Shown: piece after piece, positions 17,104 to 19,781 of the stretch
How the letters are laid out: the number at the start of each line of letters is the position of its first letter
How positions within the stretch are numbered: position 1 is the first letter of the stretch
DNA from: Chlorobiaceae bacterium
Lineage (GTDB): Bacteria; Bacteroidota; Chlorobiia; Chlorobiales; Chlorobiaceae
DNA: 37,681 nt
Direction: 5' to 3'
Assembly (NCBI GenBank): GCA_013334335.1
Contig: JAAXXR010000007.1
Span: 17,503-55,183, forward strand
The notes under the pieces: generated by a model
Databases searched by the model: none
What the model was told of the DNA's origin: nothing
Seen by the model: only the letters and a program-made list of their open reading frames with translations
Position numbers and translations under genes: made by a program

Positions 17104-17958
17104 TCACGGTTTGCAGAACGCGATGGCGCCATAGCCGACGACGGCCAGCCGGTCGTCATGCACCACGTCGCCGCTGTTGCGATAAGACGGTTCGCCAGCC
17201 TTCCATTTCCGCTTGCGGGCGATTTCCAGCAGGGTCTTGATCGCGTCAGGGCTGCAGAACGCCGAGGTCGCCCCCGGAATGGTCCGCCGCCTGATCTCCT
17301 CTTCATGGCGCTCAAGGTTTTCGATATCCATGTTTTTCATGTGCTCGAGCGTCACATGGTCTATTTTGGTGGCGTCGCGATAGGATGGGTAGTGCGAGAG
17401 GTCCGTGCTCGCCACGATCAGGTCGTCATCGGTCAGGACCGAGAGGAGGTGGTCGGCGACCGTACGGTAGATTTCGGGACTGTTTTCGCCGAACAGCATC
17501 GGCAGGATCGAGAATCCAGGCGCCAGGGTATGCTGGAGAAGGGGTATCTGCACCTCGAGCACGTGATCACAGTGGTGTGCGATATCGTGTTCATGGAACA
17601 GCCCGGGAGCGGAGGCATTGAGGCGATGGCTCAGGCCGAGGTTCACGGGGACGTCGCCCAGCGGTGAGTTCCATGCCTCGTGGGGATCGATGGCGATACC
17701 CTCGAACAGGTAGGCGTGGGCGTTTGCCATGAGGATGACCGTGCGGAACGAGCGTCCGGCGACCGATGCGAACACCTGTGCAGAGACCGCGCCGCTGTAC
17801 CGGTACGCGGCATGCGGTACGATGAGGGCTTTTGCCGTCTTTCCATTGACAGGAGGAGGTACGTCCTTGAACAGCCCGTCAAGCAGGGCTTCGAGCTCCC
17901 TGGTTTCGGAGGGGTAGAACTCCTCGGCGACAGCTGGGTATCTGATGGTCGGCTGCAT
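17104..17958 (-). CDS. amrB: MEMO-family protein (AmmeMemoRadiSam system protein B)
   Basis: A 284-aa member of the MEMO1 family, whose fold resembles extradiol dioxygenases. The N-terminus [18 protein letters not shown] and the motifs [27 protein letters not shown] and [14 protein letters not shown] match the family. The histidines of the first, second and third motifs are candidate metal ligands. The bacterial form is found beside a radical SAM protein and an AMMECR1-domain protein; here the radical SAM gene ends only 10 bp upstream and AMMECR1 is not in this window. The function is unknown; RNA or protein modification has been proposed for the system. Start 17958 is chosen because the longer frame overlaps the upstream gene. 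Confidence 0.88.
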
Positions 17959-17968
17959 GTTCGGATGT

Positions 17969-18976
17969 TTACATCTTGATAGATAACGAAGCATGGCATG
18001 ACGGGCAGCCGCCTTCGGTATCGACGCTGACGACGGTCGTTCCGAAAATGCGCGGGTGTCGCTGTATGGCCGTCCGGCCGCATCGCGGGCAAACGGTGTC
18101 GGAGTGGCCCTCTCCTGAATATATGAAGAACAATCCGGCTTTTCTTCCAATCTCCCATGCCGTTTCAATCGATTCACGGGAGCTCGCGGCGATCTCCTGC
18201 ATTTTCCGGGAGATGCCCGGCCGGAAGGGGATGATGTGCCAGGGGACCCCGCGTCCGAGTTCGTCGGCAATGAAGCCGGTCATCCGTTCGATCATGGACG
18301 GATGGTCCGATTGACCCGGGATGAGCAGCGTGGTGACCTCCAGATGCATGCCGCTCCGGGAGATCCGGCGGAGGTTGTCGAGCACCGGTTCGAGGCGGGC
18401 GCCGCAGTTGCGGCGGTAGAATGCGTCGTCCATGGATTTGAGGTCCACATTGATCGCGTCAACCCAGGGCATGATGGTGTCGAGGCAGAGCGGCGATAGG
18501 TACCCGTTGCTGACCCAGATGGTTCCGAGCCCCGAATCGCGGGCCAGCTTCAGGACTTCGAGCGCGTACTCGGCGTATATGGTCGGTTCGGTAGAGGTGC
18601 AGGAGATTGAGCGGCATCCTGCACGCAGGGCGTCAGCAACCACCGTTTCAGGTGGGGTGACCGGAATGGAGAGCCCGTCAGGAGTTGCCTGGCTATTCTG
18701 CCAGTTCTGGCTATTGGCACAGGTGAAATTGCATCCGGGGGCGCCGAACGACCAGGTGGTGCTCCCCGGCATGAAATGGTGCAGCGGTTTCTTTTCGACA
18801 GGGTCGGCCGACGCGGTTACGACGGCTCCGAAGTTCAGCGAAAAGAGCGAGCCGGCGATGTTCCTCCGGACCTTGCAGATGCCGCTCCGGCCAGGCAGGA
18901 TCCTGCAGAAATGGCAGCAGAGGTCGCACTGGATTTTCCCGTCCGGGGTCTCGTGGCAGAAATCCGCTCTCCGCAT
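17969..18976 (-). CDS. amrS: AmmeMemoRadiSam system radical SAM protein, third cluster cysteine replaced by serine
   Basis: A 335-aa relative of pyruvate-formate-lyase activating enzymes. An N-terminal cysteine cluster CDLCCHFCRILPGRSGICKV (about 17-36) and a C-terminal zinc-ribbon-like pair (CPRCG and CPSCH) are typical of this subfamily. The radical SAM site reads GCNFTCANSQNW: Cys82, Cys86, then Ser89 (codon AGC, 18710-18712) where CX3CX2C needs a cysteine. The usual YTYNEPT is CTSTEPT (126-132). Later, VDAINVDLKSMD and EVTTLLIPGQSD are well kept. ATG 18976 follows an excellent GGAGGTGATC ribosome binding site; the GTG at 18982 lies inside that site. It may be a modified or inactive enzyme. 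Confidence 0.88.
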   Translation of the reverse strand: MRRADFCHETPDGKIQCDLCCHFCRILPGRSGICKVRRNIAGSLFSLNFGAVVTASADPVEKKPLHHFMPGSTTWSFGAPGCNFTCANSQNWQNSQATPDGLSIPVTPPETVVADALRAGCRSISCTSTEPTIYAEYALEVLKLARDSGLGTIWVSNGYLSPLCLDTIMPWVDAINVDLKSMDDAFYRRNCGARLEPVLDNLRRISRSGMHLEVTTLLIPGQSDHPSMIERMTGFIADELGRGVPWHIIPFRPGISRKMQEIAASSRESIETAWEIGRKAGLFFIYSGEGHSDTVCPRCGRTAIQRHPRIFGTTVVSVDTEGGCPSCHASLSIKM

Positions 18977-18986
18977 GATCACCTCC

Positions 18987-19781
18987 CTAAAGGGTCATGG
19001 TCGCCTGGTAGACGATCTTTGCCGGCCCTTCCAGATAGACCTGCTGCATGTCGCTGCTGAAGCCGACCTCGAGGACGTCGCCGCTCCGCACCCGAACCCT
19101 GACCGGTGAATCGCTTACCTTGCCGAGGCGATAGCTCATCAGGGCTGCGGCCACGGCGCCAGTGCCGCAGGCGAGCGTTTCGTCCTCGACGCCGCGCTCG
19201 AAAGTCCTGACACTGATGCTGTCGCCGGAAGTGACCTCGAGGAAGTTCACGTTCGTCCCATCCGGGAAGAGATCCTTCCGGTGCCGGATCGCACGGCCCT
19301 CGCTGAAGACGTCGATCGTCTCCACGTCGCCGGTGAAGACGATGGCGTGTGGTGATCCGGTGTTGACGAAATGACACCGCCAGGCCCCGGCCTGCAGATC
19401 GTCCCTGAAGTCCACGGGAGGCAGCATATGCAGGCGCACGGCGTCGGTTCCGGTGACTTCGGCTTCGTAGCGGCCAGGCCCTGCATCGAACACGTAGCGG
19501 CCTGCTGCCGGCAGAATGCCGATCGACCAGGCGAAGTAGACCGCGCAACGGCCTCCGTTGCCGCACATTGATCCGGGATATCCGTCAGCATTGTGATAGT
19601 TCATCCTGAAGTCACCTGAATCCGATCGTTCCAGGAGGATCAGGCCGTCGGCCCCGATGCCGGTCCGGCGCGTGCACAGCGCATGAATCTGTTCGTGCGT
19701 CAGGTTTGCCTGGCCGAGACGGTTGTCGATAACGACAAAGTCGTTGCCTGCGCCCGACATTTTGGTGAAATTGATCTGCAT
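18987..19781 (-). CDS. dapF: diaminopimelate epimerase
   Basis: Converts LL- to meso-diaminopimelate for peptidoglycan and lysine synthesis. The 264-aa protein has both catalytic cysteines: Cys73 in SMCGNGGRCAVYFAW and Cys205 in ETLACGTGAVAAAL. The N-terminus MQINFTKMSGAGNDFVVIDN is a textbook match, so ATG 19781 is preferred over an upstream in-frame ATG at 19856. It is the first gene of a four-gene minus-strand run and ends 10 bp before the radical SAM start. Lysine-pathway and glutamate genes thus flank the radical SAM/MEMO pair. Confidence 0.96.
   Translation of the reverse strand: MQINFTKMSGAGNDFVVIDNRLGQANLTHEQIHALCTRRTGIGADGLILLERSDSGDFRMNYHNADGYPGSMCGNGGRCAVYFAWSIGILPAAGRYVFDAGPGRYEAEVTGTDAVRLHMLPPVDFRDDLQAGAWRCHFVNTGSPHAIVFTGDVETIDVFSEGRAIRHRKDLFPDGTNVNFLEVTSGDSISVRTFERGVEDETLACGTGAVAAALMSYRLGKVSDSPVRVRVRSGDVLEVGFSSDMQQVYLEGPAKIVYQATMTL

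What the first reader, a model, noticed from the sequence alone, without database searches (positions are those of the whole stretch)
18710..18733. Radical SAM protein with serine in place of the third cluster cysteine
The motif reads C82-NFT-C86-AN-S89 (GCNFTCANSQNW). Ser89 is encoded by AGC, one base from the cysteine codon TGC. Radical SAM enzymes need three cysteines to hold the [4Fe-4S] cluster that cleaves SAM. The YTYNEP stretch of the family is also altered (CTSTEP), while the frame, the N-terminal cysteine cluster, the C-terminal zinc-ribbon-like cysteines and an excellent ribosome binding site are kept. That mix points to a changed function (serine ligation, non-catalytic partner of MEMO, or a ligand taken from elsewhere) or to a very recent loss.
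Basis: partly seen in the sequence, partly recalled or inferred. Interest (0 to 1): 0.72.

Follow-up and report, generated by a model that had tools for sequence, protein, structure and literature searches.

The report
Radical SAM protein losing its catalysis
A bacterial gene for an enzyme that needs three cysteines to hold its iron-sulfur cluster has lost one of them, and close relatives have independently lost other parts of the same active site while the rest of the protein stays conserved, so it probably lives on as a non-catalytic protein or is on its way out.

Summary
The gene at 17969-18976 (-) is an AmmeMemoRadiSam-type radical SAM protein (TIGR04337) between dapF and memo, and it reads C82-x3-C86-x2-S89. 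All 78 homologues outside the genus and 14 canonical Chlorobaculum orthologues keep all three cysteines.

Ser89 is private to this species, but it is one case of a wider pattern. Within Chlorobaculum the same orthologue has lost catalytic residues several times: all three Cys (G012), Cys86 plus nine other universal residues (G006), Lys62/Lys63/Asn91/Tyr128 (G018), a stop plus C89R (G019, probably C. tepidum), and a degraded remnant (G013). Tyr128 and Trp257 are replaced in all four full-length degenerate lineages, including this one.

Outside the pocket these four evolve under normal purifying selection (omega 0.169 vs 0.171). None has a stop, and no structural cysteine is lost (0 of 32). Neutral decay since pocket loss is rejected for G006 and G012. 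It is not decided for the window gene.

Best reading: radical chemistry is lost here and the folded, cysteine-ribbon-bearing scaffold is probably still used (pseudoenzyme). Rival: early pseudogene. Serine ligation is disfavoured by the accompanying Y128S, I94N and W257R. Part of the 'CTSTEP' claim is genus-normal (CTYTEP).

The parts
17969..18976 (-). AmmeMemoRadiSam-type radical SAM protein, 335 aa, open frame
   Evidence: translation; TIGR04337 273.5 bits, cut-off 220; Pfam Radical_SAM
18710..18733 (-). cluster motif C82-NFT-C86-AN-S89; Ser89 = AGC at 18710-18712
   Evidence: sequence; Cys in 78 of 78 homologues outside the genus
18695..18697 (-). I94N, next to the cluster loop; Ile in all canonical orthologues, I/T/M/L/S elsewhere
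18593..18595 (-). Y128S in the YTEP stretch; Tyr in 78 of 78 homologues outside the genus
18206..18208 (-). W257R; aromatic or His in all homologues outside the genus, replaced in all four degenerate lineages
18875..18928 (-). N-terminal cysteines C17, C20, C24, C34, retained in all degenerate orthologues
17996..18091 (-). C-terminal ribbon-like cysteines C296, C299, C324, C327, retained in all degenerate orthologues
18978..18986 (-). ribosome binding site GGAGGTGAT
   Evidence: sequence
17104..17958 (-). MEMO-family gene (AmmeMemoSam_B), 10 bp downstream, under purifying selection
   Evidence: TIGR04336 and Pfam Memo; omega 0.068 on this branch
18987..19781 (-). dapF, diaminopimelate epimerase, upstream neighbour
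   Evidence: TIGR00652; synteny in the genus

Best explanation
This is the syntenic Chlorobaculum orthologue of the AmmeMemoRadiSam radical SAM enzyme, and it has lost radical SAM catalysis. Ser89 removes one cluster ligand. Y128S, I94N and W257R hit the same pocket. Shown by sequence: the changes, their independent parallels in G018, G006 and G012, and normal constraint on the rest of the protein. Inferred: no working [4Fe-4S]-SAM centre, and survival of the folded protein with its N- and C-terminal cysteine sites as a non-catalytic scaffold or metal-binding protein (pseudoenzyme), expressed with MEMO where memo is present. In this genome the change is at an early stage.
For: Universal conservation elsewhere: C82, C86, C89, D58, K62, K63, Q90, N91, T127, Y128, P131, D178 and K180 are invariant in 78 of 78 homologues outside the genus. 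Parallel loss: 8 sites hit in at least 3 of 4 independent degenerate lineages against 1.4 expected (p=5e-5). Catalytic Cys lost 5 of 12 against structural Cys 0 of 32 (p=7e-4). Outside the pocket, pooled omega is 0.169 against 0.171 background; inside, 0.253 against 0.075, p=8e-5. Neutral decay since pocket loss is rejected for G012 (p=6e-4) and G006 (p=0.009). About 8.2 stops expected in the four genes if neutral, none seen (P=3e-4).
Against: For the window gene itself neither omega (0.133; p=0.4 against background), nor pocket omega (0.06), nor absence of stops (P=0.39) separates retention from a very recent loss. Two genus members end as true pseudogenes (G019 stop; G013 remnant), so degeneration can be transit to loss. 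The pocket was delimited from a predicted model after the changed sites had been seen. No functional data exist.
Confidence: 0.5

Rival explanations
1. Early pseudogene: catalysis became dispensable recently in this species and the gene is drifting, as already completed in G013 and G019. No function of the protein remains.
For: G013 keeps only a degraded remnant between dapF and memo; G019 has a stop at codon 38, C89R and D178G, with omega 0.72; private changes at invariant sites are raised in the window gene (13 against 3-4).
Against: No stop or frameshift in four degenerate genes (joint P=3e-4 if neutral); whole-gene neutrality since pocket loss rejected for G006 and G012. For the window gene alone this rival is not excluded.
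Confidence: 0.33
2. Still an active radical SAM enzyme: Ser89, or a cysteine from elsewhere such as C21 or C125, serves as third ligand.
For: Pocket omega is low on this branch (0.06); R21C adds a new cysteine near the N-terminal site.
Against: Y128S, I94N and W257R accompany it, and Y128 and W257 are also lost in lineages that lost other Cys or all three. C125 is present in all genus members shown, so it is no special rescue. Ser in this position is seen in none of 78 homologues.
Confidence: 0.1
3. The frame is kept open only because stops would be polar on memo downstream (coupled operon), not for the protein itself.
For: Gaps of about 10 bp between dapF, rSAM and memo; memo strongly constrained (omega 0.068).
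Against: Does not explain amino-acid constraint outside the pocket (0.169 against 0.171), nor G012, which has no memo, nor G013, where memo survives with the rSAM gene destroyed.
Confidence: 0.04
4. Sequencing or assembly error at 18710-18712.
For: A single base separates AGC from TGC; draft genome of 130 contigs; no second strain held.
Against: Y128S, I94N and W257R occur at other otherwise conserved sites of the same gene; one error cannot make these.
Confidence: 0.03

Closest known systems
AmmeMemoRadiSam system radical SAM enzyme (TIGR04337)
   Same: whole-length match over the cut-off, next to memo, conserved N-terminal and C-terminal cysteine sites
   Different: third cluster Cys is Ser; Y128 and W257 replaced; AMMECR1 not found in this genome
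Pyruvate formate-lyase activating enzyme (PDB 3cb8)
   Same: best solved fold match, TM-score 0.78 by target length; aligned Cys loop and DLK segment
   Different: PFL-AE keeps the three-Cys motif; the window protein adds N- and C-terminal cysteine-rich extensions
Yeast Dph1-Dph2, non-canonical radical SAM heterodimer
   Same: a precedent in which the Dph2 cluster is described as regulatory rather than catalytic (PMC11048331)
   Different: different cluster motifs and reaction; Dph2 still binds an Fe-S cluster
MEMO1 family
   Same: the neighbour memo appears to keep the residues matching human metal ligands H49, H81 and C244 (ligands from PMC11081632; the match to the bacterial sequence was judged by eye, not aligned with the human protein)
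   Different: this is the neighbour, not the finding; its bacterial function is unknown to me

Membership tests
AmmeMemoRadiSam radical SAM enzyme (TIGR04337) | model score over curated cut-off | tested here: met
   273.5 bits against 220
AmmeMemoRadiSam radical SAM enzyme (TIGR04337) | MEMO gene in the same genome | tested here: met
   17104-17958, TIGR04336 208 bits
AmmeMemoRadiSam radical SAM enzyme (TIGR04337) | AMMECR1 gene in the same genome | tested here: not met
   PF01871 found in 3 of 21 genus genomes, not in G000; most genus members with canonical rSAM also lack it
catalytic radical SAM enzyme | radical SAM partial-barrel fold | tested here: met
   AF2 pLDDT 87.6; top PDB hits are radical SAM enzymes
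catalytic radical SAM enzyme | three-cysteine CX3CX2C cluster motif | tested here: not met
   C82, C86, S89
catalytic radical SAM enzyme | [4Fe-4S] cluster and SAM cleavage | not testable with these tools
   needs purified protein
pseudogene | stop or frameshift in the frame | tested here: not met
   335 aa open frame, full-length alignment
pseudogene | omega near 1 | tested here: not met
   0.133, p=6e-15 against 1, but this averages the whole branch
pseudoenzyme | catalytic residues lost while the rest stays constrained | tested here: inconclusive
   supported for G006 and G012; for the window gene key residues are lost but the time since loss is unknown

The most novel reading that the evidence does not exclude
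The MEMO-linked radical SAM protein has a second, non-catalytic job carried by its cysteine-rich extensions and barrel scaffold. Chlorobaculum repeatedly discards the radical chemistry while keeping that job, giving a natural series of radical SAM pseudoenzymes, with the window gene at its first step.
Probability: 0.4. Interest if true: 0.7.

Novelty: new variant of a known kind. Interest (0 to 1): 0.5.

Why it matters
The reaction of the widespread AmmeMemoRadiSam radical SAM protein is unknown to me, and I found no paper on it. A genus in which its catalytic pocket is lost in parallel while the rest is kept gives a natural separation of catalytic from scaffold functions. It also gives testable pairs (intact G011 against degenerate G006; intact G010 against the window gene). 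The set of co-lost residues (D58, K62, K63, C82/C86/C89, Q90, N91, Y128, K180, W257) outlines the active site without a solved structure.

Tried and rejected
Sharing of Ser89 by other species: rejected, none has it. A rescuing paralogue in the same genome: rejected, only one TIGR04337 match in G000. Link with loss of MEMO: rejected, G004, G007, G008, G015 and G017 keep all three cysteines with no memo next to the gene, while G000, G006 and G018 are degenerate with memo. A general slackening on this branch: rejected. Decay of memo alongside: rejected. G014 could not be used because dapF, the marker of the locus, was not found in its assembly. Distance-based pocket analysis was not possible because no model coordinates are given; loops after predicted strands were used instead. 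Literature searches for AmmeMemoRadiSam function and radical SAM pseudoenzymes gave nothing direct. No collection with a second strain of this species could be searched.

Full report
What is there. The window lies in a genome of the genus Chlorobaculum. Contigs of genus members G005, G010 and G017 match in length the named records Chlorobaculum sp. 24CR, a Chlorobiaceae MAG and a Chlorobiales MAG. The gene at 17969-18976 (-) encodes a 335-residue protein that scores 273.5 bits against TIGR04337, the AmmeMemoRadiSam radical SAM enzyme (cut-off 220), and matches Pfam Radical_SAM. It lies about 10 bp after dapF and 10 bp before a MEMO-family gene. The order pscA, dapF, rSAM, memo is found across the genus, with memo missing in seven genomes. 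The AlphaFold2 model is confident (pLDDT 87.6) except over the cluster loop, residues 83-85, and its best solved match is PFL-activating enzyme.

The observation. S89 is AGC at 18710-18712, C82 and C86 are present, and the frame is open. Among 78 homologues outside the genus, C82, C86 and C89 are present in all, as are D58, K62, K63, Q90, N91, T127, Y128, P131, D178 and K180. W257R (aromatic or His elsewhere) and I94N go with it.

Not alone. Four full-length orthologues have degenerate pockets: G000 (C89S, Y128S), G018 (D58E, K62N, K63M, N91E, Y128C, with three Cys kept), G006 (ten universal positions including C86S, Q90L and Y128R; also K180R) and G012 (twelve, including all three Cys; also K180H). 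By gene and species trees these are separate lineages with canonical relatives between them, although the position of G012 is weakly supported. Its sister G004 already has K180Q. G013 keeps memo but only remnants of the rSAM gene, with an 83% match to the 3' end region of the G009 gene.

Is it decay or a kept scaffold? Codon-model fits, with code written here, give a one-ratio omega of 0.158. Branch values on the species tree are G000 0.133, G018 0.176, G006 0.27, G012 0.20 and G019 0.72. Private changes at 142 genus-invariant sites number 13, 14, 22 and 35 in the four degenerate genes, against 0-4 in 14 canonical ones. The changes fall on the same sites in independent lineages (8 sites in at least three of four; expected 1.4; p=5e-5) and spare the structural cysteines (0 of 32 against 5 of 12; p=7e-4). 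Splitting the protein, the part outside the pocket has omega 0.169 in the four lineages against 0.171 elsewhere, while the pocket has 0.253 against 0.075 (p=8e-5), driven by G006 and G012. If the whole gene had been neutral since the pocket was freed, the rest should show omega near 0.4 in G006 and G012; this is rejected (p=0.009 and 6e-4). G018 is borderline and depends on how the pocket is drawn (p=0.049 or 0.27). For the window gene the test has no power, because few pocket changes have accumulated.

Limits. The pocket was drawn from predicted secondary structure after the changed sites were known, and residues 58-65 were added in one version; the loop-only version gives a similar result for G006 (p=0.016) and G012 (p=5e-4). 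Shuffles assume equal mutability of invariant sites. The number of independent lineages is small. Several genomes are drafts. No second strain of the window's species was available, so Ser89 itself remains a single observation, but the accompanying changes make a simple error an unlikely explanation of the whole pattern.

Verdict. Loss of radical SAM catalysis in this protein is likely. Retention of a non-catalytic protein is supported for two relatives and plausible for this one. Early pseudogenisation is the main rival. A working serine-ligated cluster is unlikely.

Noticed in passing
G006:C23:63934-65274 (L123), G011:C12:418276-419610 (L124), G016:C77:16116-17465 (L125): Second, unlinked MEMO and AMMECR1 domains that appear to lie in one open frame of about 460-510 aa (apparent fusion), followed in G006 and G011 by an intact second TIGR04337 gene scoring over 550 bits.
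   Followed up: partly
L120 (G019, probably C. tepidum), L106 (G004): The C. tepidum-like orthologue carries a TAA at codon 38 plus C89R and D178G; its sister G004 has K180Q in the DLK segment, so loss may predate their split.
   Followed up: yes
L115:6519-6855 (G013): Degraded rSAM remnant of about 336 bp between dapF and an intact memo.
   Followed up: yes
G004, G007, G008, G015, G017 (L106, L109, L110, L116, L118): rSAM genes with all three cysteines but no memo next to them, so the radical SAM protein can be kept without its usual neighbour.
   Followed up: partly
window 18914-18916: R21C gives a tandem cysteine (CDLCCHFC) beside the N-terminal cysteine site, private to this genome in the genus.
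   Followed up: no
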